Assembly: GCF_000189635.1 (NCBI RefSeq)
Contig: NW_002476380.1
Location: 372,001 to 436,000, forward strand
DNA: 64,000 nucleotides
Source of the DNA: Tetrahymena thermophila SB210
Taxonomy: Eukaryota; Ciliophora; Oligohymenophorea; Hymenostomatida; Tetrahymenidae
Direction of reading: 5' to 3'
The position numbers were made by a program, and so were the translations under genes. The notes under the pieces are model-generated. The model did not search any database and was not told the DNA's origin. It was given only the letters and a program-made list of their open reading frames with translations. Positions 21,324 through 58,159 of this stretch are shown one piece after another (positions within the stretch are counted from its first letter, which is position 1; each line of letters opens with the position of its first letter).

Positions 21324-21402
21324 GATGAAGGCGAGATTCGAACTCGCGCCCTTTCGGAATAGAGCCTTAATCTACCGCCTTAGACCGCTCGGCCACTTCA
21401 TC
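21324..21402 (-). tRNA. tRNA-Leu(AAG), reads CUU/CUC after A34 modification
   Basis: On the minus strand the ends pair as a 7-bp acceptor stem (GATGAAG with CTTCATC). The T arm is GCGAG-TTCGAAT-CTCGC. The anticodon arm is GTAGA-TTAAGGC-TCTAT with anticodon AAG. A long variable arm marks a type II tRNA and fits leucine. The D arm has GGCCGAGCGGT. No intron and no encoded CCA, as usual for eukaryotic nuclear tRNA genes. This contrasts with the tRNA-like array at 47.5-52.3 kb. Confidence 0.93.
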
Positions 21403-31851: not shown

Positions 31852-34137
31852 TCATGAAAGTTCTTAAATATATTTATTCAAAAATTTTTCAAACTCTTCT
31901 AAAGATGAATATGTTTAAATTTCATTAATAATGTCTATTGATTCCTGAGTTATTATTTTATTCAATTTATTTAAATATTCTTAATATTGCTTTTATTGAG
32001 AGTTTTCTTTGCATTTAAAGTTCACTTTTACAATCTTTTAGCCTCTATCTTAGTTAAATGTAATTTCAAGTGTTGAATAAAATTCTTTTGCCTACTATAT
32101 TGTTATTTACAACAATTTTTTCAAGTAATCCACTGATTCTTCTTAAAAATATTTTTCTTAATCTAATAAAAACAAAGAGAAACTTAGTACCATAAATTTT
32201 TCTTTGTCATATAGAGCCCATAATATTGAAAATAATTATTTATTTTCTATTAATTAATTTTATTTAAATTCTTTAATTTCGACAATCTTTTATTTAACTT
32301 AAGTAATTATATCTTTAATAAGTGGTGTTACTTTTTATATAAAAATATTTTATTCTTCCAATTCTTTTTGTTCATTTTAAAGCTTTTTTATTTAATCCTA
32401 TATAATTACTATCTCTTTATTTTTTTAGTTTTGATATTATTCTTTAAATAATAATAGCTCATTTTACAAAATCTATTATTTTTACTTTAAATCAGTTTAC
32501 TCTCCATTCATATTTTTAATGTTATTTTCTTCTTATAAAATATTTTCATCAAATTTATCAATTTCTTATTATATTTAACCCTAGCTTTTAACTTATAGTG
32601 AATATTATTGTTGTAATTCATTGATTTATTATTAAGCTTAGTTAAAATTAATAAGTTATTAGTTTGATTATTATTTTATATTATGATCTATTTTTTATTT
32701 TTGTATTTTAGACAACAAAATCTAAAAATCTTCAAGAAATGAAACATCAAATCCATTTTATTTAAATACATTCAAAAATTAATTAAAGAATACTGATTTA
32801 GAGAATTATTTATCAAAAATATTAATTTTAGTCTTATGTTTCTTAACAGAGAGACTTTATTACATTAGTGACAAGGCTTACTAAAAACCTGTATTCTTTG
32901 GTATTTCGTATTTTTAAGAATTACCTACCAAAATTATATTTAATTATAATTAATTAGTTTTATTATCGTTTGCTATAGTTTCTAAAGCTTTTGTTAAACT
33001 GGAAAGCAATTTAGGTAGATGAAATTTGTGCGTAAGGCTAATATTACTGAAGTTAAATCTATCCTCAGATTAATATTTATAAATTGAATAATCACTTTCA
33101 TTCAAATTTTTTTGTAAAAATTCTTTTAATAAATTCTCCTAATGTTATTATTCACAAAATTCATCAATCAAAAGTATAACTTTACTTTTTTATTGTGATG
33201 CTTAGCCTATTATTTTATTTTATGAAATCTAAAACTGATTAATTAAATTTTAAATTTCTTATTAGTGTTTTTTTTAGATAGATTCATACATTTCTTTTTT
33301 CTATTCATAATTGTTAGTAGCCTCCTTTTTGATTAATAAAATATTATGTTAGTAAATATAAAATTTTTTTTCAAATAGAAAATTAATTCTTTAAAACAAA
33401 TTTTTACAAATTAATTAATCCAAAGTTATTAACAACTAAAAATTTAAAATAATAAGAAATATTTTTAATACCTTTATTTGCGTAGTTATCTTATTTTACT
33501 CATTTTTAAGATTGGTAAGTTCTACTTCCAGATTTTATTTGAAGCTTTTTAATTTATCCAAAGACAATAAGAACATATTGATATTTTTTTCACATTCTTA
33601 CATTTATTTTTTCACTTCATCTATTTCTTTATTTAATTTTATATATTTACTTTCTGTAAATAAATCTTATTCGATCTTATTTAATGTGCATTCTAATTAT
33701 GTAGTTTATGTATTTATATCTTATTAATTTTAGTTTTTTTATTTTTCATTTGTTTATTAGGTAAAACTTAGTTGAGATTCATTTTTAATCATTTCTTCTA
33801 AGGATTATTATAATTATATTTAGAATTAGTGCATCTACATGTAAGATTGTTTTGTGAGGTTTATATTTTCTACAATAGTTTTTCTAGGAGCAGGTAATGT
33901 TGAAGGGCTGTAATGTTTTGTTTTTTTCTGTATTTATAGATGTTCTTATAAATTTTGTAGGATATTTCTGACACTAGGAACATAGCTATTGATATATTTC
34001 GAAGTTATATCTTCATCTCCTTTCATAAAATCTTTAATTTTTTATAAGCATAATATGATTGGATTTAATTGCTCTTTTAAATCTTTTTATTGATTTGATA
34101 GAAGCGTTTATTAAAGATATATAATATTCTTCATCAT
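31852..34137 (-). CDS. Large coiled-coil protein with a possible degenerate vWA-like core
   Basis: Two exons (34137-33472 and 33435-31852) around a 36-bp intron give 749 residues, phase 0. The N-terminal third is polar. Coiled coils follow (KLNKEIDEVKKQMQECEKN and VELTNLKNEQNKITTQIK). A globular middle begins KVILLIDEFCEQHQENLLKE and continues with KALETIANDNKTNQLQLN and then IILVGN. The order strand with Asp, helices, then a second hydrophobic strand suits a von Willebrand A fold, but DxSxS is replaced by DEFCE, so metal binding would be lost. The C-terminal 350 residues are Gln-rich coiled coil. It lies head-to-head with the vWA gene at 36111. A nucleotide-binding Walker B reading of LLIDE is less likely because no P-loop is present. 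Function unknown. Confidence 0.7.
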
Positions 34138-36110
34138 AGGTAAATATTTTTTTATATTATTAACTTTATATATTAATAGATTAAATAAATTAGAGTTTTA
34201 AAAGAATAATTTAATTAACTAATTAATTAGTAGCTACTTATTTACCTAATATTTGTTAGAATATTTAAATTTTAATTAATAAATTCTTTTATAATTCTAT
34301 TACCAACTTTACTGATAATAAATATGATTTAAAATAAAAGTGTTTTATTTTAATTAAAGTTTTTCGACTATATTAAAATAAAATACTTTTATTTTTATTT
34401 GGTAGAATAATTTAAAATCGTTTTGAAGGGAAGAGGAGGTATGCTTTAAGTGACTGACTGTTGAATGGAAAGTGCTAAGTTTTATGGGAAAAAATTATAA
34501 GAATTTAAAATTAAAGAGTGATTTGCTATCTCTTTTTATATCCCTAAAGAAAAATAAACCGTAATTTGGAAAAAATGACGAATTAAAACGGAAATTAATA
34601 ATATAGAAGTGCTTTATTTATTTATTTTATTTCTAAATGACGTTTAAAAAATTTATAAAAGATTAAATTCTATACCCAACTTTCATTTATAGATTGATTT
34701 GTTAGTAAAATAATATATTTAATATTTTATTATTTTATTTGCTTTTTTAAAGAGAAAAATTACTAAAATAATATTTATTCGATAAATGTATATTCCATTA
34801 GATAAATATAATAAACTAGAGAAGAAGAAAAACCTTTTATTTTTAATGTTTTTATTTGATAATCATTAAAAAAATAACAAAATATTAGAATTATTATAAT
34901 AATTTCTTTTATTATAATGAATTACTTATTGATGACAAATTATGATGAATTTTTTTTCTTTTTTGCGTTTTAAGATAATAAAAGAGATTTAAATTGAAAT
35001 TCGAAAATTTAAATGTTTTCAAAATAATAATATGTTTAAAATATAATTATTTTATTTGCTTTTTCTTATCGAAAAACAACTAATTTTATACTTATTAGGT
35101 AACTTCATACAAAATTAAGTAAAAATTATTAATTTTCTATTTAAAAATTTTTTGTTTTTCATACTATCTTTCAAAAATAATACTAATACCCTTCATTATA
35201 AATAAATGTTGTGAATATTTATTTATTAAGCCAATTTATGGTCTAACAAAAATAATTTTTTGTATAAAACAATTTTTCTATTCAAAAAACGAAATAAAAA
35301 TTATTTCAATAAATTAAATCTTTATCAACTATAATGAATAGAATTAAAAATTACTCACTCCATTTAAGTTAATTATTTGATAAACATTAGAGTTTTAAAT
35401 CATTTTTTCGAAATATTCTAATTACTTTTAAAAAAATACTCTTTGATTATTCGTTTTTATTTCAATCTAAGTTTTCGGAAAGTTTTAATTGAATTTTTCA
35501 TAAATATACTGATTAGTATTAGAACTCAACTCTTTGATGATTTGTTTTTATTTAAATCTAAATTCGAAAATAAATTCATTTGTATATTAAAATAATAATA
35601 TATTTAAAATATAATTATTTTATTTACTTTTTATATGGGAAAAATAATTAATTTTATATTTGTTAGCCACCTCAAAACAACAATAAGTAAAAATTATAAA
35701 TTTTAAATTAAAAAATCTTTTGTTTTTAATGTTATCTTTCAAAAATTAATACAAACACTTTTACATAAATAAATGTTGTTAACAATTACTTATTAAGTAA
35801 ATTTTTAATCTAGCAAACTGAATTTTTTGTATAAAATAATTGTATGATTAGAATATGTATGTAATCATAATTGTAAGAACATGATAAACATTTTTAATTT
35901 ATCAACTAGATAATAAATACTCACTCATTTGTATATTTATTATTTGATAAACATCAAAGTTTTAAGTAAATTTATGTTTTTTATTCTAATTAGCTCTCAA
36001 ATAATTTCTTTTTAATCATTTGATTTTAAATATTATGATTGCTCTCATAAATAATTATAATAAAATAAACAATAAAATAAAAAAACAAATAAATAAATAA
36101 ATAAAAAGAC
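34138..36110. other. Divergent intergenic region with a two-copy tandem duplication
   Basis: Nearly 2 kb between two head-to-head genes, so it should hold both promoters. Much of it is the duplicated segment listed separately. No gene was found. Confidence 0.55.
34970..35990. repeat. Two diverged tandem copies of a ~567-bp non-coding unit
   Basis: The blocks 'aaaataataatat', 'atataattattttattt', 'aaatgttgt...taagt/taag' and 'actcactc...atttgataaacat' occur in the same order from about 35021 and again from about 35589. The offset is constant at 566-568 bp. Similarity is clear but imperfect. No open frame is conserved between the copies. Confidence 0.65.
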
Positions 36111-39100
36111 ATGAATTTCTAAAATCTATTGAAAAAATAGAACTAGTAGCTTGGAGAAATTTAAATAGGCTTTGATACTGAGGTGTAAAATTCTAACTAG
36201 GCTAATGATGTTTCAAATGCTCTGGAAGCAAAAATTTCTAATATGTAAATAAATAAAGAACTGCTTGGTTCAAAAGAATCTTTTAGTATATAATCAGAAA
36301 GCAGTATAAAATCTCAATTGGATACTACGGATCAATAAAAATAAGAAAATATTTTAGATAATTAATATAATAATTTGGCCTTAATTTAACAAGACTCTGA
36401 TAACAAATAAATTATAGTCAATCAAAATTAAGAGGATGAAGAAAACTAAGAATAAGTTAGTTTAGATAAATAAAAATAAGAGCGCTCCTTGTCTATATAG
36501 ATAAACCATTCAATTAGTGAAATGAAAAACTATTCTTCATAGTTCATAAAAGAATACAAATACATAAGTTAAATTTAATAATATTAACCAAATATTATTG
36601 AGGAAAACAAAAAAGATTAATACACAATATCTGTAACTAATTTCAATAAATTACTTCATCAATTCTAATGCTGGCCACATTTAATAAGAGGTTTACAACA
36701 TTCAGTAATTTTATCAAATTTTTATTTTAAAACTAGTGTTAATTTTTATTTTTCAATAAAATATAGTTTGAAATATTGTCAAAAAAATTTGTAAGACTAT
36801 AAGTCTAAATTGCTTAAAGAATTGAAGATCATTTCAAAATCACCTATACACTTAAAGATGAAGATCTTGGTTGTCTTTTAAAAAATAATAAAAATTTATG
36901 TGATGAGTTAGAACAGCTAAAATAATAGTTTTTAAATGAAAAATCAATTTAGGAGAGTAGTATTAATGAGTGCATTTCAAATCTAACACAGTAATTTAAT
37001 GATATATATGGCACAGCATTAACTGAGAATTAAAGAGAAGATATTTTAAAAGCTAAAAGTGAATTAAATAACTTGTATTTAGAAAGAGATTAAAAATTGA
37101 TGGAACTTACATAAAATTTTCAATAAACTGTGTGTAATTTTAACCTTTTATCAAATGAAGAATAATTTAAAAACCTTGAAATCTAAGAAATAATAAAAGA
37201 AATTTCTAAACTTAATCGATAAGAATAAAAAATTTTAACAGACGCTTAATGTTCATATGAAGAATTTAAATAGCGCCGAGATGAAAAAATCAAAGATATT
37301 TCTCTATAAATTTAAGGTTATTAAAAGTAAATTTAGGATTTACAGACCGAAAAGGAAAAGAAAGAAGAAAACAATCTAAAAAAATTAGAAAAAGATTTAA
37401 ATTAAATTAAAGTCTGCCATTCAACCATTTAAAAAATATTTATGTAATCTAATAAAGATTGTTTTCATTACATAATTTTACTTGATTAAAGTAGCAGCTT
37501 CTAAAATGCCTATTAATCTGCAAAGAATGGAATCTTATAATTTACTAAAAATTTACAATAAAATGACGTTTTAACTATAGTAAGCTTTGCAAGCAGTTCT
37601 AGAATAATAGTTTAAAAGTAGAAAGTATCTTAAATTAATTTAAATTCATTAGAAGCAAACTTAAGAAATATGCTCTGTGGTGGAACATGCTTCATCTCAG
37701 CTTTTGAATCTTTAAAGTAGATCATCTAAAATCAATTAAATACAAATGAATATCCTATAATTTTATTTGTTACTGATGGCTAAGATAGTTCAAATCTTTC
37801 TAATACAATTTTAGATGTTAGAAATTAGGTAGAAGATTTAATATTTTTTACTGTAGGGTATGGTTATCAAATCAACCAAAAGTAGCTTCATTTAATTACA
37901 AATTTATTTAATAGAACGGATAACCTTACTAAAAATATTAATAATAATAAAACAATTAAACTATATTACGAAAATTAAACTCCCGATAAGCTTTAATAAG
38001 ATATCATAAAAATATCTTAAAATAAACTTAGTATTGAAGAGATATAAGAGGCTGCAGATTTCTTAGAGAAAAGTTTTAATAAGTAAAATTAATTATCTGA
38101 AGATTACTACACATCGAAAATTTAAGGATTAGAAAAAAGAATCCAAGAATGTGTTAATTAAGAAAAATAATTAATGGATAATCAAAAAAATATATAACAC
38201 TTTAGAGATTAAAGTAAACAATAATTAGAATAAATATAATAACAAATTTAATCATTGAAAAATTAGAAATTCGCACATGAAAATAGAATTTAAAAAATAA
38301 AATCAGAGAAACTAGCTCTTGATAAAAATTTCTAAAATAAAATCATCAGTAATTAGACCAATCTTTAATCTAATATGAAATAAGAAAATTATGAAGCACT
38401 GTATGAATATTAAATAAAACAAATTAATTAAGAGGCTGATTCTTTAATTAAAAAAACAGAGGATAAAATGTAAGCTATAAGAAAAGAAGAAGATATGTCT
38501 GTGGAGAAAAATAGAAAACGAATTATAGAGCTAGGTTTTTAAAATATTTAATAATTTTATAAATTTAGAGAACTCTATGAAAATATAGGATCTATTTAAT
38601 AGTCAGCTTCAAATATAAAATAAAAGTACATTATTATGTTGGATGCTATGATTGATATTGGTCAAATGCTTGAATAAAATATTAATTGTTCTAAAAAAAA
38701 TATTGAAAATATGAATAAAAATGATACTGAAAATAGAATTTTGTAATATTTTTAAAAATTTGATAAAGATATATGCTTATAGGATAAATCAGAGGCTAAA
38801 AGAAAAGTTTTACTAATATAAAATTCCTCTATTTACAATATATGCTAGTAATAAAAAAAGGAAAGTCTATATGAAAACTGTATAAACAATTTAGAGTTTT
38901 CAGATCTTTTCAAGTTAGTAGACCAGGATGAGAAAAGCTAAGAAAAATATATTATTAAAGAAATTGTTCCAAATATAATTAAGCAACCTAAATAATAAAT
39001 TTCAAATTAACTTTAAATTTAAAAATATAATACCAAAATTAATGAAATTAAAATGAAAATCGAAGAATAAACAGATAATAATAAAATTCAACTTTTAACA

Positions 39101-39421
39101 TAAACCTTAGAATAATATGAGGAATAATTAGATTTGTTAAAAGATAAAGAACAAGATTTGATAGCAGATTACTAAGACAGAAACTACGATGATATTAAAA
39201 TTGTTAAGTAGATCACATACTCTTTTATCGAAGCAATCAAATGTGCCTCAATAGAATTAAAGTATCAGTTTGCTGTTTTACCTTATAGGCATTACATGAA
39301 TAATATTTATAACTGCTATTATACTCTTAAAATTTATGAAAACCCAAAATTATTAGATAATTATGTTCAATCAGAAACATTTGAAACCAAGTAAAGATAA
39401 CTCGAAAACAATCCGAAATGA
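36111..39421 (+). CDS. Large coiled-coil protein with a von Willebrand factor A domain
   Basis: Two exons (36111-36704, 36767-39421) give 1082 residues, phase 0. After an acidic Gln/Asn-rich N-terminus and a coiled coil, a vWA domain spans about residues 425-600. It contains HYIILLDQSSS with the MIDAS DxSxS starting at Asp438, NDVLTIVSFASSSRIIV, GGTCFISAFES supplying the MIDAS Thr, and PIILFVTDGQDSS with Asp535. These are the residues that coordinate Mg2+ in ligand-binding vWA domains. The remaining 480 residues are mainly coiled coil, ending in a compact region (SFIEAIKCASIELKYQFAVL). Likely an intracellular scaffold using vWA for regulated partner binding. The ATG follows a typical A-rich ciliate leader. 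Confidence 0.88.
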
Positions 39422-44012: not shown

Positions 44013-45980
44013 TCAAAATTGTTTATTGCGTGGAGAATTTTGATTTAATTAAGAAGGATTATACTAACTTTTTAATTTTGAAGCATTAGTAAATCTTTTG
44101 GGACTATTATTTTTTGAGCTATTTCTAGATTTTGATATTTTAATATTTGGGGTCTTTGATCTTACAGGAATTACTATTTTTTAATCATTAGTTTATTAGG
44201 CTTTTACTTCTTGCTATTAATTGCATATTGTTTTTGGTAAATTTTAAGATACATAGTTAAATAATTAATCTTAAGGTTCTAAATGTTATATCTGCTATCC
44301 ATGGGGAGTGTTAGAACAAAAGGTGTTTTAAAGTACTTAAGGTAATTACATTTGTTATTATTATCTACTTGGATGATTATATGATTTTCTTCTCTTCTTT
44401 GAATTAGAAGAAGAAGGATGCTATATTTGAACTGTGTTAGTAGGATATTAATTATTATCCTATTATGGATTAATATTAAAATTATTATTTTCTTATAAAT
44501 TGTATGACTTGTTTTGCTTATCTACATATTTTGGGGTTTTTTAGAATCCGTTTTAAGTTTAATTCAAATTACTAGGAGATATTGCTCTTCCTGTAACACT
44601 GCTATGCTATTTATTACGTTTATAAAAATTGAAATTTGTATGGTTTTTATTAAATTCTTAAATTTCTTTGACTTTTTCTTTAAACTGATCTCTTAAATAC
44701 TTTAAATGCAGTTCACTTTAATCAACTCCGTATGCGTTTTTAATCATTTTAGGACTATTATGAAATACAAAACTTTTTCTTCTTACTTATCTAGTTGAAT
44801 TTAAAATTTTTTATATATTAGATGGTGTAGCATAAACTTGCATCTAGCTGCCACGGTTACTTAATAAAAATTTATTTGCATCAACACGAATACTGCCATC
44901 AGGCTGGATATTTTATTCTATGTTTTCATATTCTTAAATCATATCAACTTATTCATTTTAACTTAAATTCAGATTTTTCTTCTTGAGTTTTCTTTTCTTT
45001 CTATAAACTAAATTGTTATTGTTGTTACTACTACTTAAACTTTTTATTTCTTCTATATTATCATGCTAATTATTTTATCCTAAATGATACTACAATAGAC
45101 TATTCGGGTTGGAGCTTCTAGGAGATTAATTTTCATTTTAATAACTGATTGTTGTTTCAGATTCAAATTAATATCTCTAAGATATTATTTAATCTTATTA
45201 AGTTGATGCTGCTGTACTAATTTTATTGTTGTGATTCTAGTAATTTGGAAGCTGCAACTGCTTATAAACTTTTGGTTCATAAGCATTTATTTTATGAACT
45301 TTTGCTAACGTATTCTTAAAATCAAATTCATCTACTCTATATTAAGATTTCTCCTATTTTCTATCTGGTGATTATGATTGTCTAAGGGCTTATCTTGAAT
45401 AAATTTCTCCTTGCTTGGTTTGATATGAAGTTATTGTTTAATTTTTAGAGTTTTCTGTAAATTTTTAATTATTAACAGAAGATTATTCATAGTCAATTGA
45501 AGACTGCTAATTTTCCAATTCACTTCTGTTATTCATATATTAGTCAATATAAACTTTAGTTTTTAAAAGATCGTTCTTTTTTACTTTTTAACTAGAATTT
45601 GTTTCCATAAAAAGTTTGTTAATTTCCTGGTTTGTCAATGGTTTTTCAACATTTTTTGATCTTTCTTTAGATATTGAGTATTTACTCAAAGAATCAAATG
45701 AGCCTATTTAGTTAGATTAGCTAATATGTTTACTTTAAACTGGACTTTCAAAATCATCGTTGTACGATCCATTGAAATGTTACAGTGTTAAGTCGCCATC
45801 TTCTTTGAAGTATCTTTTCTTTTTCTTTTTTGAATTTTGTTAATTTGTAATACTAGAATTGCTACCTGCTATCCTTGAAGATTAAATATCTAAAGTATGA
45901 GAGATTTATTGATTATCATACATTTAAATTGTTCTAGCTTTAGCAGTATGGCTATTTTACTGCTTTATAGGTTCCTCCAT
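44013..45980 (-). CDS. Gln/Asn/Ser-rich, mostly disordered protein
   Basis: One exon of 655 residues from ATG 45980 to TGA 44013. The N-terminus is MEEPIKQQNSHTAKARTIQ. There are several basic clusters (NSKKKKKRYFKEDG, YRKKRKLKKKN, SKKRRKSYN) that could serve as nuclear localisation signals. The central part, QPDGSIRVDANKFLLSNRGS followed by QVRRKSFVFHNSPKM, is the least Q-rich and may be a small ordered or binding element. The C-terminal third is N/Q/S-rich with KTPNIKISKSRNSSKNNSPK, resembling phosphorylatable SR/SP linkers. No catalytic domain. A nuclear or RNP-granule scaffold is a guess. It reads without interruption, and its many Gln codons are mostly TAA/TAG. Confidence 0.75.
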
Positions 45981-46421
45981 CTATCTCTTTATTATCTGTG
46001 AATAAATTCAAACAAATCGAACAATCTAAAAGTGTATTTCTAAATGTAAAAATGAATTTCAATATAAATGTGTCGTTATTCTTATAAAAAATTAAAATTT
46101 TTAGAAGTATTCAATTATGATTAAATTAACAATCTTAAAAGTCTTTGATATTTGATTTAAAATTTGTTTTGCTTAAAATTAATGGAAGTAATTGAATGTA
46201 ATTAATTATCAGTTATTAAGCTAAATTGTTAAATACTTTAAAGTAATATTAATTTACATATATTTGTTAAATAAACAAAGAATGCCTTCATTATTTTTAA
46301 CATTTCTAAAAAATATTAAAGCAAATTTAATAATCAAATAGTATCCTAAAATCTGCAAAAAATTAAATATCTTTTATATTAAATCTAATTGATATATTAT
46401 TGTAATTATAAATTTTTAGAT
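45981..46421. other. Intergenic between divergent genes
   Basis: Short AT-rich region between two divergent starts; presumably bidirectional promoter DNA, no motif assigned. Confidence 0.55.
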
Positions 46422-47207: not shown

Positions 47208-47507
47208 TAGAATATTTTTTTTAATGCCAAAAAAGGAAAAATATTAAATAAATTGCACTGTCTTTAATATATAAATTATCCTTCCAAAATATAATTATAT
47301 AATTAGAATAAATATTATTTTTTTTATAAATTCATCATTTGTATCTTTATTTAAGCAAAAAAAAAAATTGTAAATCCTTTTAATTTATTATAATTTATTT
47401 CTATTTTTTTAATCTGCTTTTAATTATAAACAAAAACTGTGTCTACTAACCAACTAGTTACTCTAATTAGAATTTAAATTATACAATTTTAATAATTATC
47501 GTTTTAA

Positions 47508-47580
47508 GGGCGCTGGCTCCGGTGAGCAGTTATGATCTCCAAAATGATACTTATTGGTTCGACTCCAGTAGTGCCCCCCA
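47508..47580 (+). ncRNA. tRNA-like RNA gene, copy 1 (class T)
   Basis: GGGCGCT pairs with AGTGCCC as a 7-bp acceptor-like stem. GCTC-CGGT-GAGC makes a short D-like arm and ATTGG-TTCGACT-CCAGT a canonical T arm. GGTTCGACTCC equals the Pol III B-box consensus. The central loop contains CTCCAAA, the heptamer of tRNA-Trp (CCA) anticodon loops, but its stem is imperfect. C-CCA is encoded after the acceptor and is followed by T5. Not a standard tRNA because the anticodon arm is poor. Confidence 0.75.
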
Positions 47581-47859
47581 TTTTTAGTTTTTAAATATGT
47601 TTTTATATTTAATACTTGAAATAAAATAAATTTTTAAAATAACACTAAATTAGTTGATATAAATATAATATATATGACTAAATGAATGATAGTAAAATTT
47701 TATTTAAAAAATAAAATAAATTATTCTTAAGTTTATTTAAAATATTTTTTAATAGTTAATCTTGCAATTTATTTAAAAACATAAAATAAAGAGTCTAATT
47801 AATTAATAGCTACTTTAGCTTAGATTTATATTATCAAGTTTGGTTAATTAATGTTTTCA

Positions 47860-47932
47860 GGGCGCTGGCTCCGGTGAGCAGTTATGATCTCCAAAATGAT
47901 ACTTATTGGTTCGACTCCAGTAGTGCCCCCCA
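47860..47932 (+). ncRNA. tRNA-like RNA gene, copy 2 (class T)
   Basis: Identical in the 73-nt module to copy 1, with the same CCCA-T5 end, 352 bp downstream. Confidence 0.75.
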
Positions 47933-47976
47933 TTTTTAGTTTTTATATTTGATGTTCAAAATAAATTAATTTTTAA

Positions 47977-48030
47977 CAGTTATGATCTCCAAAATGATAC
48001 TTATTGGTTCGACTCCAGTAGTGCCCCCCA
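47977..48030 (+). pseudogene. tRNA-like copy 3, 5'-truncated
   Basis: The last 54 nt of the class T module (from cagttatgatctcc through the B box and CCCA) are identical to copies 1 and 2. The acceptor 5' strand and D-like arm are missing, so neither the A box nor the closing stem can form. Confidence 0.8.
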
Positions 48031-48248
48031 TTTTTATTTTATTTTATTTGAGTAAAACAAAATTTAAATAATAAAACTATTTATTACTTAATACAAAATA
48101 AATCAATAAAGCACAATAATTTATTTAAAGATAAAAATCATATTTTAAGTTTAAAATAAACGATTAATCAAATTTAAATAAAATTATCCAACAAAAAATG
48201 ATAATTATTATCTTATATTTATAATAAATTTTAATTAATATTTTTAAA

Positions 48249-48312
48249 GCATTGACTCTGGTGGGCAGTTATGAACTCCAAAATGATACTTATTATCTCA
48301 ATTTAAGCAGTT
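48249..48312 (+). pseudogene. tRNA-like copy 4, degenerate
   Basis: gcattgactctggtgggcag aligns with the class T 5' half, and 'ttatgaactccaaaatgatacttatt' follows. The B box and acceptor 3' strand are destroyed. Confidence 0.7.
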
Positions 48313-49185
48313 TTGTAATTATATACATTACATGAAGTTAAAATAGATTTTTAGACACCTCCTCAATAAATTTATTATAAGAAATTTTTACATACAATAA
48401 ATATTTAGAAATTATTTTCTAGCTTAGTATTTTAATTTTAAGATATTTTATTTTAAATAAATTCTCTCTCAGCTGATAGTTTCACTATGAATAAGGTTTA
48501 TTTTTATGAGATAATTTTACATAAATATAAGCAAAGTAAAGTTTAAATGTAAAAATATATTTTACTATGATTATTCATTAAAAACATTATCAGAACTACT
48601 TTATTAAATTTTTGAATTTCTAATAAAAAAATTCGTATCGTATTGTATTGTATTTTACTTTATATTTTATTTAAAAATGATCAAAAATGTTATTTAATTA
48701 GCAATAAAAACATCATAATTTTTTTTAAAAGACATTCTTTGTAAAATTTTTATATTTTTCCTTCATAATTATTGATTTAATTCTAAGATACTTCTTTAAT
48801 AAATAAATAATTTATTACTCTCAATTAATTAAAATGATAGATAAATGTTAATGAAATAATTTCTAGATTTTATTTTTCATTTGTTTAATAATTAAAGTCA
48901 TCTACTTTAGCTTCTAAATCTATTATTAAATTTCAAAAATTATTTTAAAAAAAATATAAAAAGCATATTTTACTCTAAATTAAAGAAAATTAATATTAAT
49001 ACTATTCCTTTTATTGTAATTTAAAAAACAAATAAGTTTAATCTACATCATAATTTATGTTGAAAAAACAAAAGATATTATTTCTCATCAATTAAATATT
49101 TTGGAAAGTAATTAAAGTGTCTATAAGTTAAATAGAAGAATTAACTCTAATTAATATTCATAATTTGTAACAATAATCGTTTACA
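48313..49185. other. Spacer between the class T and class G sub-arrays
   Basis: AT-rich DNA with no recognisable copy of the module and no gene. Confidence 0.55.
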
Positions 49186-49259
49186 GGGCACGAGCTCCGG
49201 TGAGCATTAGCATCTCCAAAATGAAAATCTAATTGGTTCGACTCCAAAAGTGCCCCCCA
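49186..49259 (+). ncRNA. tRNA-like RNA gene, copy 5 (class G)
   Basis: First class G copy. It starts GGGCACG (one change from GGGCGCG) and has GCATTAGCATCTCC, B box GGTTCGACTCC, a CCAAA variant of the T stem, encoded CCA and a T-run. Spacing to the next copy is 327 bp, shorter than in the rest. Confidence 0.72.
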
Positions 49260-49512
49260 TTTTTTAAAAAATAAAAATAATTTTTTTTATTAACAAAATA
49301 GTTAAATGATAATTTTATTCATTTGGAAAATTATTTAATAGTCTAAAAAACTATAAAATTAATTTTTTAATAGATTTTTACACTTTTTTCAATAGTTAAC
49401 TTCATTTTTTTCCATTTAAGTTTATTTATGACATTTTTTCTATAGCGTCTTAATTCAAAATAGCTACTTTACTAACACCTATAATTAATTTTACTTTAAA
49501 ATATTACTTTCA

Positions 49513-49586
49513 GGGCGCGAGCTCCGGTGAGCATTAGCATCTCCAAAATGAAAATCTAATTGGTTCGACTCCAATAGTGCCCCCCA
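49513..49586 (+). ncRNA. tRNA-like RNA gene, copy 6 (class G)
   Basis: GGGCGCG...GTGCCC six-pair closing stem, D-like arm GCTC/GAGC, and a GTTAG-type helix with an A (gcattag). ATTGG/CCAAT T stem is fully paired. CCCA plus T6. Confidence 0.75.
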
Positions 49587-49902
49587 TTTTTTAAAATGTA
49601 AAATAATTTTTCATTTATGATAATATCTAAAAAGTAACTTTTCAAAAAATAAATAACAATTTAAATATTTTTCATAATTTTCAAACATTTTATTCATCTG
49701 AAAAACTTTTTAATTATTCAAAAAATTATAAAATTTATTATTTAATAAATAAAATAATATCTTTTTACATTTATTTGAATAATTATCTTAGTTTATTTTT
49801 CTATTTAAGTTTATTGATGATATTTTTCTTATAGTGTCTTAATACAAAATAGCTACTTTAACTAACACCTATAATTAATTTTGTTTAGATTTATTACTTT
49901 AA

Positions 49903-49976
49903 GGGCGCGAGCTCCGGTGAGCGTTAGCATCTCCAAAATGAAAATCTAATTGGTTCGACTCCAATAGTGCCCCCCA
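49903..49976 (+). ncRNA. tRNA-like RNA gene, copy 7 (class G)
   Basis: Same module with GCGTTAG; GTTAG can pair with CTAAT across the CTCCAAA loop. Fully paired T stem (CCAAT). 390 bp from the previous copy. Confidence 0.75.
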
Positions 49977-50293
49977 TTTTTTAAAATATAAAATAATTTT
50001 TCATTTATGATAATATATAAAAAATAACTTTTGAATGATAAATAAATAATTAAATATTTTTAAAATTGTTCAAACATTTTATTTATCAGAAGAATTATTT
50101 AATTATTCAAAAAATTATAAAATTTATTTTTTTAATAAATAGAATAATATATTTTTACATTTATTTGAATAATTAGCTTCATTTATTTTTCTAATTAAGT
50201 TTATTGATGATATCTTTTTTTAAAGTGTCTTAGTACAAAATAGCTACTTTAACTAACACCTATAATTAATTTTATTTAGATTTATTACTTTAA

Positions 50294-50367
50294 GGGCGCG
50301 AGCTCCGGTGAGCGTTAGCATCTCCAAAATGAAAATCTAATTGGTTCGACTCCAATAGTGCCCCCCA
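50294..50367 (+). ncRNA. tRNA-like RNA gene, copy 8 (class G)
   Basis: Identical module to copy 7, 391 bp downstream, CCAAT version of the T stem. Confidence 0.75.
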
Positions 50368-50682
50368 TTTTTTAAAATATAAAATAATTTTTCATTTATG
50401 ATAATATATAAAAAATAACTTTTGAAAAAGTAAATAAAGAGTTAAATTTTTTGATAATGTTCAATTATTTTATTCATCTGAAAAACTTTTTAATTATTCA
50501 AAAAATTATAAAATTTATTTTTTAATAAATAAAATAATATCTTTTTACATTTATTTGAATAATTATCTTAGTTTATTTTTCTATTTAAGTTTATTGATGA
50601 TATTTTTTTTATAGTGTCTTAATACAAAATAGCTACTTTAACTAACACCTATAATTAATTTTGTTTAGATTTATTACTTTAA

Positions 50683-50756
50683 GGGCGCGAGCTCCGGTGA
50701 GCGTTAGCATCTCCAAAATGAAAATCTAATTGGTTCGACTCCAAAAGTGCCCCCCA
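50683..50756 (+). ncRNA. tRNA-like RNA gene, copy 9 (class G)
   Basis: Identical to copy 8 except CCAAA in the T stem, costing one pair; 389 bp downstream. Confidence 0.75.
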
Positions 50757-51071
50757 TTTTTTAAAATATGAAATTATTTTTTGATTTAGGATAATATTTA
50801 AAAAGTAACTTTTGAATTATAAATAAACAGTTTAATATTTTTCAAAATATTCAAACATTTTATTCATCTAAAAAACTATTGAATTATTCAAAAATTATAA
50901 AAGTTATTTTTTAATAAATAAAATAATATCTTTTTACATTAATTTGAATAATTAGCTTCGTTTATTTTTCTATTTAAGTTTATTGATAATATTTTTTTTA
51001 TAGTGTCTTAATTCAAAATAGCTACTTTAACTAACACCTATAATTAATTTTGTTTAGATTTATTACTTTAA

Positions 51072-51145
51072 GGGCGCGAGCTCCGGTGAGCGTTAGCATC
51101 TCCAAAATGAAAATCTAATTGGTTCGACTCCAAAAGTGCCCCCCA
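51072..51145 (+). ncRNA. tRNA-like RNA gene, copy 10 (class G)
   Basis: Module identical to copy 9; 389 bp downstream; CCCA-T5 end. Confidence 0.75.
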
Positions 51146-51460
51146 TTTTTTAAAATATGAAATTATTTTTTCATTTATGATAATATCTAAAATTAACTTT
51201 TGAATGATAAATAAATAGTTAAATATTTTAAATTGTTCAAACATTTTATTTATCAGAAGAATTATTTAATTATTCAAAAAATTATAAAATTTATTTTTTT
51301 AATAAATAAAATAATATATTTTTACATTTATTTGAATAATTAGCTTCATTTATTTTTCTAATTAAGTTTATTGATGATATCTTTTTTTAAAGTGTCTTAA
51401 TACAAAATAGCTACTTTAACTAACACCTATAATTAATTTTATTTAGATTTATTACTTTAA

Positions 51461-51534
51461 GGGCGCGAGCTCCGGTGAGCGTTAGCATCTCCAAAATGAA
51501 AATCTAATTGGTTCGACTCCAAAAGTGCCCCCCA
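51461..51534 (+). ncRNA. tRNA-like RNA gene, copy 11 (class G)
   Basis: Module identical to copies 9 and 10; the last intact copy, with CCCA-T6. Its 3' flank departs from the array unit soon after. Confidence 0.75.
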
Positions 51535-51748
51535 TTTTTTAAAATATGAAATTATTTTTTCATTTTTAAGAGTATTTAAAATAATTTCTGATCCCTTAAT
51601 AATAAAATATTTTTTAAAAAATTGAAACATTTGAACATTTTTTTTTTTGATAAATAGAAATGATATTACTTTACACTTTTAAAGTTCATAAATTAGTTAC
51701 TTTAATAAAAACTTATATTTAATTTTACTTTGATATATATTACTTTTA

Positions 51749-51804
51749 GGGTGCAAGATCCTATGAGCTTTAGCATATCTGGTTAGACTCCAACATGCTC
51801 CCCA
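51749..51804 (+). pseudogene. tRNA-like copy 12, degenerate
   Basis: gggtgcaagatcctatgagc, then tttagcatatctggttagac and tccaacatgctccccatttt. About 17 bases of the central loop are deleted and the B box is mutated (GGTTAGACTCC). Confidence 0.75.
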
Positions 51805-52230
51805 TTTTTTGACAAAATAAATTAATTTAAAAAAAAATTTATTTAACTTTTAAAAAGATAAAAATGTATTAATTTATTTTTTGATTTAAAATCACATCTT
51901 ATGCTTTTATGAATAATATTTTTTATTATTTGTTATAGAGAAAATAATAAAATTTAATAAAATAATTAATTTTAGATTCTCTAATTATTAAAATTAACAA
52001 AGAATTTCATTTAATTATTAAATTAAAACATCCAAATAAATTCATAAGTCAAATTATCTACATAAGAACTTAAAGTAATCTAAAAACCAATCTTAAAGCT
52101 ATTGATGAAATTTATAAATTTTTGTTTTATTTTTAGTTTTAAAAGCATTTGAATTTAAATCTATTTAGCCATTTCCTGTTTAATTTAGCTAAAAATATAC
52201 AAATTTAAAAAACAAAGATCTCAGCTTTAG

Positions 52231-52310
52231 CATCCTAAGTTTCAGTGAGCATAAGTGTCTCCCCAAAATCTATAATTACTCCAAATTTAAAAGCGGTTTA
52301 TTTCCATTTT
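52231..52310 (+). pseudogene. tRNA-like copy 13, highly degenerate
   Basis: Faint similarity only: a gtttcagtgagcataagtgt block, then ctccccaaaatct, tccaaatttaaaag and ttccatttt in the order of the module. The oldest remnant at the right edge. Confidence 0.5.
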
Positions 52311-52784: not shown

Positions 52785-55700
52785 TCAAACTCTTAAATTC
52801 TATTTTTATCTTGATCTGTTTGTAGAAGAGGATTACTTACTATTATGCAAGTTTTAATAAGTCTATTATATTTTAGATTTTTGTTCACGAGCTTTTTTAT
52901 TTATGAAGCCAGAGTATCTTTCAAGTACATCTGTATATAAGTTTGAGTTATGTTTTGAAAATAAATATTAATTGTTATATAAATTATTAAAATTTGCATT
53001 TTATTTTTTTCCTACTGGCATATTTGACTATGACCTCTTTTCTTAGCAAACATTTTAAGGTTAATCTAAATTTAGAGATGTATTATTATACAATTTTTTG
53101 CTGCTCTAAGTTTATTAATATTAATTTGCTAGTACATTCTATGATTTTTCAAATAATATTTCGTCTACTAAAATTATAAATAAATAAGATTTAGAATATA
53201 AATAGATTATTTATAATTTAATATTAAGTAAATTTTTTATTTCTTAATTTAATATTAAAATATTATTTTTATTCTTTAAATTAAAAAAAAATATGAAAAT
53301 TATTTAATAAATTTTTACTTTTTGATTATGGAATAGGAACCAAAGTACCACTTTTTTTGCAATATTTAAAAAATATCTCATTGTCTCCGATATCTATTAT
53401 GTTTTTAATTTGACTCTTTAAATGCTCCTTCTCGTTGTCTGTATTATTATTTAAAGAGACCGAAGTTAAAGCTTAGAATTAGTTATTGACTTTTCTTAGT
53501 ATCGTTGAATTTTGCAGATTATAGCTATTTACACTGCTAAAGATTTATTGTTTAGAAAAATTAAAGGGTGTACTTTAATTACCTCCAATACCATTGTTAC
53601 TGTTTATGCTTTGTGATTGCATTGAATTTGATGCTTCACGATAATTATTTAATGACTCTTCTTCTTCTTAATCATTTTATGTTAAAAATCTTTTTTTAGG
53701 ATTTAAATTACTATTTTGACTTTCGCAATAATCTCTATCAAATTCTTTGGGAGATTTTCTTTGATCTTCTAAGTCGATAATGTTTTAGTAAGTAATTAAA
53801 GTTTTTTTACAGATGTCTTAAGCTTCTAATAGCATTAACTCATTCATTTTACTGTTGACTTTTATATTTTGATCTGAAGGATATGAATCTTAGGTTGCAC
53901 TGTTTAGTTCATTTTGTATTATTTTATTAATTTAAAATTCATTTGTGCTATTTGCACTATCTATGGGATTTTTTTTATTTTTATTGATACTTTATGTTTT
54001 ATTTTTAATAGATTATTGTTTACTTTTTGGAAGAGTGTTTTATTTTTAAATCTAAAAGCAATTAGCATTATTTTTTTATTGATTTAATTTCACTTAATTT
54101 TCTAAAGAAACGTTGATATTCATACCTGCGATCAGGTTATTTTCTTTATTCAATTAGTCAACTTGCACTCCTTTATCATATACAAGCGGATTCTTTAATT
54201 ATCTGGTAAAGCTTAATTCTTTAGCTGGGATAGGTGTAAAGTTGCTTAGCTTTTCGTTACAATCGGATAAAATAGATGAGTAATCTGAATTTTCAGAGCT
54301 AAAATTTAAATAAATTTAGATTTTATCTTCAGGATTTAATTTTTTCTTAGGTGCAGATTTAAGCAAATGCTATTGTTTATTATCCTCATCAATTACAGTG
54401 AGCAATTAATTTTATATGTATTCATCATCAGTACGAGTTAACTGAAAGTCGAAGGTGGTATTGTTATTATTATTAATACTCTAAAAATTGTTTGAATTAT
54501 ATTAAAATGAGTAATTATTATGATTAACACCTGCTTATTATTATTACTTTAAGTTCTCTTCTTTTTATATTTAAACTGAATTAGAATACTATCTTTTATC
54601 ATTTTTTGGTGATAATTTTTGTTTTAAGTTGATGCTGTTTAAATTAATTTCCCTTTGTAATTTATTTTATATCTACTCTTATAAGTTAATGCTCACTTAT
54701 ATTGGTTATGAGAGTTATTTTTGTTGCTGGAGTTGTTGTTATTATCTGAATGAGCTGTTTTATTCTTACTTTATATCAGATGTTCTCACAGTATTTTTAT
54801 TTGATAATGAATTTTGCTTAAGTTCTTCTTTATCTTTCGTCTTGTTATTGCAATCTTTTTTAATATTTTTATATTCATCACAGCTACTTGATTAATAATT
54901 AGCATAGCTTGAAGTAGCAACAAATGAATCCATACTGGAGTGATTGAGATCCTTCTGCTAAGGTTTTTATGTATTTGTTTAGAACTATTTCTTCTGTGAG
55001 AGATGCTCTATCGGTTGTTACTATTAATTAAAACTATCATTTATAATTCTATTATTTTATTTGAATTATGGATTATCTTAGACATCTATGCTTCTTGGTA
55101 TTATTGATATACTTGCTTGAGAAATTTAACTATTTGACATCTCCTTGCTAAATTCCTATTCTTTTATTTGCATATTATTTAGTTCACAAGATTAGATAAT
55201 AGATTTTTAACCATTTAAATCTTTTTATGAATTTATAAGGGATCCATCTTCATTTTGAATTTCTTTAGTTTTATTTTCTTAAACTGAATTTTATTAAATT
55301 TATTTTAAACCATAGGCATTAATATTTTATTTTTAACCATTTTGTTGAATTGGTTCTAAAACTTGTTTTAATGCTTAAATTTAAATAAGATTGACATTTT
55401 AAACAGATTTTTACTACATTATTTGATTTTGAGCAACTTAAAACCTAGCATCTATTTTTATTTGTTATTTGGGTTGTAATGCTTATATATTAGGTATTTA
55501 TTAAGATAAAGGCAAAAAGGAAGGCTCTTGTATTGCCAATTATTTTTAATTACTGCTCAATATATTACTTAAAGGAAAAGCTTTAATTGATGGTTGTTCA
55601 TTTAAACAAATTTATTTTGCTTATAATTATTGAAAATCATTTTAAACTTAAAAATTTTAATTGCCTTTTAATAAAAATATTCCTCCGTTTCTTTAAGAGT

Positions 55701-58159
55701 CTACTGAAAAGTAATTCTCCCTTTATTGTTTTTGACCGCTTGAGTATTAGTAAAAGGAATCAGTAAATTAGGTACTTTAATTAACTGATTAAGATCTTTA
55801 GTTAATATTAAATAAATATGGTTGAATTTATTATTAAAGCTGGTTGCTTTCTTTATTTATTGTTGTTACCTTTTTAACAGATGTAACAGGATAATAATAT
55901 TTCTGTATGGTTGGTAATTAAGTTACTGATGTATTAATTAAGCTTTTATTACTTAAATCTTTCTTCTCACTTTACTATGTATAGTTATCACAGCTTTTAT
56001 CTTCTTTTAGCTTTTCGTTTGAGGCTCTAAATACACTTAAAGAAGATACATGTGAGAAACTTCTCTGAATTTAAGGATTGCATTCTGTTGGATGTGGAAT
56101 TATCCTTATTTATTAATCTACGAAGTTTTAATTTGATTACAACAAGTTATCTTAAGAGACGTGTTAGGTATCCATTTATTTATATAAATCTTCTAGCTTT
56201 ACTATCAACTGTCTCTCATTATTTTAATTGGATTTTGACAAAAAATTATTGCTTCTGTAGTTTTGTGGTATTTGCTTGTTGCTATTTGCACACAATTAAC
56301 TATTTTAAAATACTGTTTAAGAATTATTGTGAATGCTTTGATCTTTATTAGCAGAAATAAAAACATAATTATGTTTTGTTTGCTAATTATTTCCACTATT
56401 CATTAATAGAAAAACTGAGTTCCCACTTTTCTTTTAATCTTCAGTTGCAGAGTACATTAGAGAAACTTGATCATCCATATTTTTTCCATAACTTTTTTCC
56501 TCTCTTTTATGAGCTTAAGGAGGAGAATTTAAATTAATTTTAGATTTTTGCTAAGAGCTATAAAATAGCTAATTGATTTGTTGCTCTTTCATTTTCTTTT
56601 CAGTTTCTTACTAAATCAAGTAGTTCTCATTTTGACAATTTGTATTTAACTTTTTCTTTTATGTTTATTCGTTCGAAGCATTCTCTTATTTTGTTGAGGA
56701 TGTTTAATTGCTCGTGATTTGGGTTCTATTTGTGCTATTTGGTTAAATAACTTAATTTTGCTACTTTGAATTTTATTTAGCTGATGAAATATTATCACTT
56801 GATACTTATTTATTATTATCTGCTCTTTCAAGATCTTTCTGTTCAAAATCTACACTTCTTTATTGATTCACTAGGCTTATACTTGTGTTTTACTTTTTTT
56901 ATTCAGGGGATTCATTAAAGCAGCTTTCATCTTTCAATTAGCTAGTGTTGTGTGCACTTGATTATCTAGCTGTATTCCTATCAATTACTAAAATATTTCC
57001 AGTACCTTATTTTCCTTCTAGTTATTATTAATAATAATTATTTTTTTAGCATTAAATATTGTTTAATTGAATATCTGAATGGTTATTTTAAGAAAATATA
57101 CAGCTGCAGTCTTATTAAGATGATAATACAGTTGAAGGATTATCTTGATTAAGGCATACATGATTTTGTGGTGTTTTATTTTTTTGTAAGAAATCTACAA
57201 CTTTAATATTTTCTATGGGAATATTTTGTGAAATAGTTGTTCTTATTGTACTTTATTGTTCTGATTCACAAAATTAAGGATAGCTAGTTAAAATTTTAGG
57301 TTAATTACTAGCATTTATTGCGTGCATTTATCTGTTATTAGAAGTTATATTTGAGAAATGCTATGCTTAAGGAAATTGATTATTAAGCTTAGCTGTAACT
57401 GTAATTCCTTTATTTGCACTGTTATTATTGTTATTGCTGTTAAAACTAGAGTTATTATCGTAAATAACAACATTCCTCAACAATTAATAAGGTGACATTC
57501 TTGATGATTTATCAATCGAGCCTGCACTATTCTATATAATTCTAGGGACCTATTTTTAAGGAGTAGCAAGTTAACTACGTTACAACTAAGTTTGAGCTAT
57601 ATAAGGAACTTATTATTGCTATTAAATTTGACCTTAGTTTGAAGCTAAAGTCACTCTTAATCTTGAAGATATTTAATTTTATTAGTCCTATATCTAATCT
57701 TACTTAATTTAAGTAGGATTTTTATTTTGATATTCTATCATTGAGTTATCTAAATTGGAAATAACTGATTTCACTTAACTTGCTGATTGAGAATCATAAA
57801 AATCTGTAAAAACTGTCTTTTAATTTGAATTTTAAATATTTGGAATTTTTTAGGTGATGGAGTATTAATGAGGCTAAGAGTAACTAATTGTTGCAGATCG
57901 GTTATGTGCTTTAATAGGTACTATTTATTTTATTCTTAATAATATGATTAATAACGGCTATTGAGACTTAATAAATTTTTCGTTAAATTGTCGAAGTAGA
58001 ATATTGAAATTACTGGTAGTTATTCATCGTGGAATATTGTTAAGAATGAGTTGGCAAAGAAACAGATCTTTCTTTTGCTTCATTTGCTTACTAACCACCT
58101 TTAATATAGTATTAATCATTTTAACCTATTTCATTCTTTTTGGATGGAGATCCTCCCAT
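52785..58159 (-). CDS. Giant Gln/Asn-rich disordered protein with N-myristoylation-type start
   Basis: Three exons (58159-58014, 57934-53319, 52930-52785) give 1635 residues. The 4.6-kb central exon stays open in one frame, and its length fits the phases of both introns, which supports the model. It begins MGGSPSKKNE, a good N-myristoylation sequence. The body is dominated by Q, N and S with homopolymeric patches (NSNNNNNSANKG, FRQQQQLQQQKQLSQ), typical of prion-like domains. Slightly more ordered islands include EIFFKYCKKSGTLVPIP and the C-terminal LERYSGFINKKAREQKSK. Most Gln codons are TAA/TAG. No enzyme domain is seen. It may be a membrane-recruited scaffold or condensate former. Exon 1 and the long last intron are less certain than the body. 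Confidence 0.78.

What the first reader, a model, noticed from the sequence alone, without database searches (positions are those of the whole stretch)
47508..52310. Tandem array of an apparently undescribed tRNA-like Pol III RNA
Thirteen copies of a 73-74-nt module share a T arm with TTCGACT loop, an exact B box (GGTTCGACTCC), a 6-7-bp closing stem, a short D-like arm and a T5-6 end. The central helix is too weak or unusual for a standard tRNA. The strongest constraint is on the CTCCAAAATGA loop and the T arm. Possible identities are a Trp-like tRNA family, a vault/Y-like small RNA or a new class. The module is identical or nearly identical in the nine intact copies while spacers diverge, which suggests function or recent homogenisation.
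Basis: partly seen in the sequence, partly recalled or inferred. Interest (0 to 1): 0.88.

Follow-up and report, generated by a model that had tools for sequence, protein, structure and literature searches.

The report
Ciliate tRNA-like RNA gene family
A Tetrahymena-like ciliate carries 28 intact copies, in three clusters, of a small gene for an RNA that is folded like a transfer RNA but does not look able to read codons like one, and no known RNA family matches it; its job is still unknown.

Summary
The array is real and is one of three. The genome (101 Mb, ciliate code, ciliate telomerase RNA) holds 28 intact copies: 9 in the window, 12 on C154, 7 on C394. Modules are on average 97-100% identical within an array, spacers 58-81%. 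In C154 the conserved unit runs from -70 to the T-run and then stops sharply. All arrays share a cloverleaf: acceptor stem, tiny D arm (4 bp, 4-nt loop), canonical T arm, C-run, T5-8. The anticodon arm differs by array: a weak stem with one or two mismatches and, in the register I propose, a loop with U33-C34-C35 reading CCA, CCU and CCU, with C37 in the last two. All 9 within-array differences in stems keep or restore pairing; none of 14 differences lies in the anticodon arm. A bipartite element starts at -67 in 26 of 28 copies; it is not at that place in 15 ordinary tRNA genes or in 16 U6/U2/SRP/telomerase genes. Rfam gives only sub-threshold tRNA-Sec scores. Best reading: a Pol III tRNA-like RNA family that probably does not decode; divergent decoding tRNAs are the main rival. 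Transcription and function are untested.

The parts
47508..47580 (+). copy 1, subtype A, cloverleaf module
   Evidence: ARAGORN tRNA-Trp
47860..47932 (+). copy 2, subtype A, identical to copy 1
   Evidence: ARAGORN tRNA-Trp
47977..48036 (+). 5'-truncated subtype A copy (positions 20-79, 100% identical)
48253..48294 (+). decayed fragment (90% to subtype A positions 7-48)
49186..49259 (+). copy 3, subtype B (the only copy without the -67 element)
49513..49586 (+). copy 4, subtype B
49903..49976 (+). copy 5, subtype B
50294..50367 (+). copy 6, subtype B
50683..50756 (+). copy 7, subtype B
51072..51145 (+). copy 8, subtype B
51461..51534 (+). copy 9, subtype B
51749..51810 (+). decayed copy with its middle deleted
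47441..47465 (+). upstream element GTCT-N14-YACTTTA of copy 1 (one mismatch), at -67
47793..47817 (+). upstream element of copy 2, at -67
49447..49471 (+). upstream element of copy 4, at -66
49836..49860 (+). upstream element of copy 5, at -67
50227..50251 (+). upstream element of copy 6, at -67
50616..50640 (+). upstream element of copy 7, at -67
51005..51029 (+). upstream element of copy 8, at -67
51394..51418 (+). upstream element of copy 9, at -67

Best explanation
These are 28 genes in three arrays for one family of small RNA polymerase III transcripts shaped like tRNA, each array (with two subtypes in C157) having its own anticodon-arm type. Proposed mechanism: (1) Pol III initiates near a fixed point set by the -67 element together with the internal A/B-box-like arms, and stops at the T-run [anatomy shown, transcription inferred]. 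(2) The U-tailed transcript is bound by La (Mlp1) and folds into a tRNA elbow through G18-G19 of the 4-nt D loop and U55-C56 of the T loop [sequence shown, fold and binding inferred]. (3) RNase P and tRNA 3'-processing enzymes may trim it: -1 is A in all 28 copies, as in about 75% of T. thermophila tRNA genes [inferred]. (4) It does not decode. It displays an array-specific middle arm with the invariant UCC in its loop to a protein or RNA partner, acting as a tRNA mimic [inferred].
For: Three arrays, 28 copies, 0 matches of the reversed pattern. Mean module identity 0.97-1.00 within arrays; whole spacers 0.58-0.81, unrelated 120-mers 0.38. 11 of 12 C154 modules identical. Conserved unit -70 to +79 in C154. 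14 within-array differences in 28 copies: 9 in stems, all keep or restore pairing; 5 in linker or variable-loop positions; 0 in anticodon arm, D arm or T loop. Cloverleaf core on 13 of 28 copies: 97.1% of cells paired; covariation score reached by 4 of 500 shuffles. UCC can be placed at 33-35 of a 5-bp/7-nt arm in every array. -67 element in 26 of 28, -66 in one; not at that place in 15 tRNA genes and 16 U6/U2/SRP/TER genes. T5-8 and A at -1 in 28 of 28. No Rfam match over a cut-off.
Against: No expression data. Folding energy is ordinary: z -1.23 and -0.43 for the two window copies folded. For both C157 subtypes another fold is 1.0-2.1 kcal/mol more stable than the cloverleaf, and in C154 and C394 the predicted fold leaves the middle unpaired, so the anticodon arm rests on alignment alone. 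Other registers also give 4 of 5 pairs in C157A and C394, and each observed arm is matched by 8-12% of shuffles. Only one stem pair changes on both sides; that count and the count of pair types are reached by 158 and 148 of 500 shuffles. ARAGORN calls subtype A tRNA-Trp, so decoding is not excluded. Ordinary tRNA genes here also sit in arrays with identical modules and diverged flanks. No ordinary tRNA-Trp gene was located.
Confidence: 0.57

Rival explanations
1. They are divergent but working tRNAs: C157 a tRNA-Trp(CCA) with a weak anticodon stem, C154 and C394 tRNA-Arg(CCU)-like. If C157 were the only tRNA-Trp gene this would be compelling. A short or weak stem might also let the CCA tRNA read UGA.
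For: ARAGORN of 28 copies tRNA-Trp at default; relaxed, it of 9 window copies Trp and 12 of 12 C154 copies Arg(CCU). Loop CUCCAAA has U33 and A37. Stem changes keep pairing. A pattern for a standard tRNA-Trp anticodon arm found no CCA tRNA within 2 mismatches. Short anticodon stems in tRNA-Trp are linked to UGA reading in some ciliates (start of abstract of PMC13092985, seen in the listing).
Against: In the same register C154 and C394 have C37, where tRNAs have a purine (recalled rule). Relaxed ARAGORN is inconsistent for C394: 4 Ile, 1 Arg, 2 of 7 not called. One nucleotide before the D stem, 3-4 after it, a 4-nt D loop and discriminator C are all unusual for tRNA (norms recalled). No copy is listed over the Rfam tRNA cut-off. 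The -67 element is not at that place in the 15 ordinary tRNA genes examined. The code appears to be table 6 with UGA as stop.
Confidence: 0.23
2. Relic tRNA genes kept alike by tandem duplication and gene conversion, without present function.
For: Decayed copies lie in the window array. Subtype B spacers are still similar (mean 0.81), and in C394 and C157B conservation extends beyond the unit, so parts of these arrays are young. Folding stability is unremarkable.
Against: In C154 11 of 12 modules are identical although downstream flanks average 0.50 identity (unrelated mean 0.38, highest of 60 pairs 0.50). Conversion would have to respect the borders of a 150-bp unit. The shared 5' half, T arm and -67 spacing persist across three contigs. 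Changes in stems keep pairing.
Confidence: 0.09
3. A ciliate vault RNA or Y RNA: Pol III RNA with conserved ends and a variable middle.
For: Same general plan (recalled): closing stem, A/B-box-like ends, variable centre, T-run; genes in tandem.
Against: No Rfam vault or Y match even at E<=10. No MVP repeat or shoulder domain found in the genome, though no control genome rang either. Vault RNAs lack the perfect D-arm hairpin and Y RNAs have a long stem (recalled).
Confidence: 0.05
4. A degenerate tRNA-Sec family, because the 4-nt D loop and the best, though weak, Rfam hit point there.
For: tRNA-Sec is the Rfam model listed for 9 of 9 window copies (21-27 bits) and 12 of 12 C154 copies (19-21 bits, E 3-10).
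Against: Cut-off is 47 bits; none of the 7 C394 copies is listed. No long variable arm, no 6-bp D stem and no UCA anticodon. The genome has a tRNA-Sec at C396 scoring 68.6 bits.
Confidence: 0.03

Closest known systems
Canonical nuclear tRNA (Rfam RF00005)
   Same: Acceptor, D, anticodon and T arms in order, T loop TTCRACT, B box, possible 5-bp/7-nt anticodon arm with U33, T-run, tandem arrays as for ordinary tRNAs in this genome
   Different: 4-nt D loop, unusual linker lengths, mismatched anticodon stem, C37 in two arrays, not listed over the Rfam cut-off, upstream element not seen in 15 tRNA genes
tRNA-Sec (RF01852)
   Same: 4-nt D loop with GGU, best Rfam score
   Different: No long variable arm, 4-bp instead of 6-bp D stem, no UCA; separate tRNA-Sec gene over the cut-off present
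Vault RNA and Y RNA
   Same: Small Pol III RNA with conserved ends and variable middle (recalled)
   Different: No family match; closed D-arm hairpin; no MVP found (negative without control)
Other tRNA-like non-coding RNAs (bacterial YrlA module, MALAT1 mascRNA; recalled, not compared here)
   Same: tRNA elbow and T arm kept, anticodon arm reduced
   Different: Stand-alone 28-gene family with several arm types; no sequence relation tested
snRNA-type upstream promoters of U6/U2/SRP/telomerase genes of the same genome
   Same: Element at a fixed distance about 60-67 bp upstream
   Different: Motif is GTCT-N14-YACTTTA; CCCATAA/ACCATAA is in 15 of 16 of those genes and in 0 of 28 array copies; B box inside the gene

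Membership tests
Canonical tRNA | Score over the Rfam RF00005 cut-off | tested here: not met
   no array copy listed (window: at cut-offs, at E<=10; C154 and C394: at E<=10). Only the best family of a clan is shown, so the RF00005 scores themselves were not seen
Canonical tRNA | Acceptor stem of 7 bp, D stem of 4 bp, T stem of 5 bp with 7-nt loop | tested here: met
   16 of 16 pairs in the C157A, C154 and C394 majority; 14 of 16 in C157B
Canonical tRNA | 5-bp anticodon stem, 7-nt loop, U33, purine 37 | tested here: not met
   4 of 5 pairs in C157A, C154 and C394, 3 of 5 in C157B; U33 in all in this register; C37 in C154 and C394. C157 alone has U33 and A37
Canonical tRNA | Aminoacylation and decoding | not testable with these tools
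   needs RNA
tRNA-Sec | Score over 47 bits, long variable arm, UCA anticodon | tested here: not met
   19-27 bits or not listed; 4-5-nt variable loop in C157A, C154 and C394 and 6 nt in the typed middle of C157B; CCA/CCU
Vault RNA | Rfam vault match, MVP in the organism | tested here: inconclusive
   no Rfam match; no MVP hit but no control rang
Y RNA | Rfam match, long Ro-binding stem | tested here: not met
   no match; no such stem in the folds of the four module types
Pol III type 2 gene | Internal B box and T-run terminator | tested here: met
   GGTTCRACTCC in 27 of 28 copies (the copy at L028:2468 has GGTTCAACTCT); T5-8 in 28 of 28. Transcription not tested
Type 3 (PSE) gene of this genome | CCCATAA/ACCATAA at -58 to -64 | tested here: not met
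   in 15 of 16 U6/U2/SRP/TER genes; in 0 of 28 array copies within -110

The most novel reading that the evidence does not exclude
A new class of abundant, non-decoding tRNA-like RNAs in Tetrahymena: one scaffold, its own promoter type, and interchangeable anticodon-arm modules (one per array) sharing a UCC loop, each kept intact by selection and each addressing a different partner.
Probability: 0.4. Interest if true: 0.82.

Novelty: new variant of a known kind. Interest (0 to 1): 0.63.

Why it matters
A 28-gene RNA family with its own upstream element, without a match over any Rfam cut-off, in what looks like one of the best studied ciliates would be either a new tRNA-mimicking regulator or a set of extremely unusual tRNAs. 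Both are directly testable in an organism with good genetics, and the -67 element offers a possible new Pol III promoter type to dissect.

Tried and rejected
Model R1 and the first pair count used a T-stem/acceptor register that was one column off; one search has the right one, and R1 was used for no completed search. In one search three of five folds began 5-7 nt inside the module; whole modules were folded. In one search the loci of minus-strand matches were shown in the wrong orientation; corrected. L031 had the same fault and was redone.

The promoter idea 'same PSE as U6/telomerase' was rejected. The bipartite element as a genome-wide promoter was not supported: 147 matches against 253 for the reversed control (only the first places were listed). 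In the control searches two-mismatch matches to the element occur at other places (L219 -72, L221 -51, U6 L044 -51). An open, arm-less middle was considered, since the predicted fold leaves it unpaired in C154 and C394, and I prefer a weak anticodon arm. The joint chance estimate there, 0.0013, treats three families as independent although C154 and C394 share their stem, and the register was chosen after seeing the data.
Full report
WHAT IS THERE. The window is G000:C157:372001-436000 of a 101-Mb, 445-contig genome. Read with TAA and TAG as glutamine it has ORFs of 1624, 1349 and 939 codons holding 177, 151 and 98 such codons (stop to stop); under table 11 with common starts there is no ORF of 150 aa. 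The ciliate telomerase RNA model hits once at 161.9 bits; by recall its sequence is that of Tetrahymena thermophila, but no call names the species. In the window nine intact copies, one truncated copy and two decayed copies were found.

A FAMILY OF THREE ARRAYS. A DNA search of the same genome found further arrays on contigs C154 and C394. An exact pattern, D arm plus start of the T arm, has 28 matches in the genome: 12 on C154, 9 on C157 and 7 on C394. None is on the reverse strand and none comes from the reversed control. Relatives with an altered D arm would be missed. Mean pairwise identity of modules is 0.982 (C157B, 7 copies, lowest 0.959), 1.0 (C157A, 2), 0.993 (C154, 12, lowest 0.959) and 0.973 (C394, 7, lowest 0.945). 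Whole spacers average 0.81, 0.58 and 0.72 in C157B, C154 and C394, against 0.38 for unrelated 120-mers of the window (60 pairs, highest 0.50). Column conservation in C154 is 0.70 in the bin at -80, 0.84-0.97 from -70 to -1, 0.99-1.00 over the module, 0.93 in the bin with the T-run and 0.50-0.64 after it (background 0.50). The unit is thus about 150 bp. In the other two arrays the borders are blurred by related flanks: C394 has 0.77-0.96 from -110 to -71, and C157B has 0.89-0.93 from +80 to +99.

STRUCTURE. The majority modules of C157A, C154 and C394 form all 16 pairs of acceptor, D and T stems; C157B forms 14. On 13 of the 28 copies, chosen as sequence variants, 97.1% of cells pair, against 39-68% for slid versions. 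The covariation score is reached by 4 of 500 shuffles, but only one pair changes on both sides, and that count is reached by 158 of 500. Across all 28 copies there are 14 differences from the array majority: 9 in stem positions, all keeping or restoring a standard pair (6 distinct changes), and 5 in linker or variable-loop positions 21, 22, 41 and 43. None is in the anticodon arm, D arm or T loop. The middle arm differs between arrays yet is constant within them apart from its edges. With the shared UCC placed at U33-C34-C35, each array gives a 5-bp/7-nt arm: AUGAU-CUCCAAA-AUGAU (C157A, 4 of 5 pairs), AGCAU-CUCCAAA-AUGAA (C157B, 3 of 5), AAUAA-UUCCUCC-UUAAU (C154, 4 of 5), AAUAA-AUCCUCA-UUAAU (C394, 4 of 5). 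Other registers reach 4 of 5 in C157A and C394, and shuffles reach the observed number in 8-12% of cases per array. Against the fold: energies are ordinary (z -1.23 and -0.43), the predicted fold prefers other pairings for both C157 subtypes by 1.0-2.1 kcal/mol, and it leaves the middle of C154 and C394 open.

PROMOTER AND ENDS. GTCT-N14-YACTTTA, with at most two mismatches, starts at -67 in 26 of 28 copies and at -66 in one; it is absent from the copy at 49186. Fifteen ordinary tRNA genes (Thr x6, Ser x5, Leu, Cys x2, Sec) have none at -66 or -67 (the Ser locus L031 redone). Sixteen U6, U2, SRP and telomerase RNA genes (all that were fetched; one of nine U2 matches was not) have none there either, and 15 of them carry CCCATAA or ACCATAA at -58 to -64, which validates the comparison. 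That motif is in 0 of 28 array copies. The bipartite pattern is not enriched genome-wide, so it looks private to this family. All 28 copies have A at -1 and T5-8 at the end. T. thermophila tRNA genes have A at -1 in about 75% and very short trailers (PMC9705548, passages). A CC or CCC before the T-run also occurs in an ordinary tRNA-Thr array here, and CCA is found in only 1 of 7 C394 copies, so an encoded CCA should not be over-read.

COMPARISON WITH KNOWN FAMILIES. Rfam: nothing over a cut-off on the arrays. tRNA-Sec is the best weak model, at 21-27 bits in the window and 19-21 bits in C154, with no listed hit for the C394 modules (cut-off 47). A tRNA-Sec gene over the cut-off is elsewhere at 68.6 bits. 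ARAGORN at default of 28 copies, as tRNA-Trp. Relaxed, it calls Trp for 9 of 9 window copies, Arg(CCU) for 12 of 12 C154 copies, and Ile or Arg for 5 of 7 C394 copies. MVP domains were not found, without a positive control. No ordinary tRNA-Trp was found by one recalled consensus pattern, which does not show that there is none.

LITERATURE. Ten searches of the held library listed no paper that, from title and abstract start, describes such a family; the one for four module strings found no paper at all. I read of PMC9705548 the outline, sections 7 and 22 and passages, and passages of PMC7916137, PMC4967479 and PMC4394434. The T. thermophila genome paper of 2006 and a paper looked up by a recalled DOI as a macronuclear ncRNA survey are not held, so an earlier listing of these genes as tRNAs or ncRNA candidates is possible.

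VERDICT. A real, apparently selected, tRNA-shaped Pol III-type gene family with its own upstream element. Most likely it is a non-decoding tRNA mimic with several arm types; divergent decoding tRNAs are the main rival. What is shown is the anatomy and the pattern of conservation; transcription, processing and function are inferred. On checking I moved 0.01 from the best reading to the decoding rival, because the anticodon-arm register and the missing tRNA-Trp gene are weaker supports than I first wrote.

Noticed in passing
L085:977-1042 (IMG/VR 3300005326_000040, 338 kb contig): A viral tRNA-like cloverleaf with the same mini D arm (required by the search pattern), a tRNA T arm, an acceptor stem, 3' GCCA, and an 8-bp middle arm with a UUUC tetraloop, so no anticodon loop in the predicted fold. 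No ARAGORN call; tRNA-Sec 25 bits; fold z -2.9.
   Followed up: partly
L223:4072-4122 (minus; IMG/VR 3300006176_000056): Second viral tRNA-like sequence with a 4-nt D loop, T arm, acceptor stem and CCA (read by eye), and an odd middle arm containing CUCCA; no ARAGORN call. These are the only two hits of that pattern in the viral collection.
   Followed up: no
L217-L222 (G000:C394:86991-89373): Ordinary tRNA-Thr array (6 of 6 fetched copies identical) whose trailer is CCC (5) or TCC (1) followed directly by the T-run, a useful control for 3' ends and module/flank conservation.
   Followed up: partly
L035, L042-L056: U6, U2, SRP and telomerase RNA genes share CCCATAA/ACCATAA at -58 to -64 (15 of 16), a clear proximal element of this genome.
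   Followed up: yes
G000:C114:497907-497925: An anticodon-arm-like match with loop CTCTAAA (CUA), perhaps a UAG-reading glutamine tRNA of the ciliate code.
   Followed up: no
window 21323-21402 (minus): Ordinary tRNA-Leu(AAG), 56.8 bits.
   Followed up: no
window 53149-58023 (minus), 31852-35901 (minus), 44013-46007 (minus), 36602-39421 (+): Long ORFs under code 6; three have no Pfam match at E<=0.001, the last has a borderline VWA_3 domain (27.4 bits, cut-off 27).
   Followed up: partly
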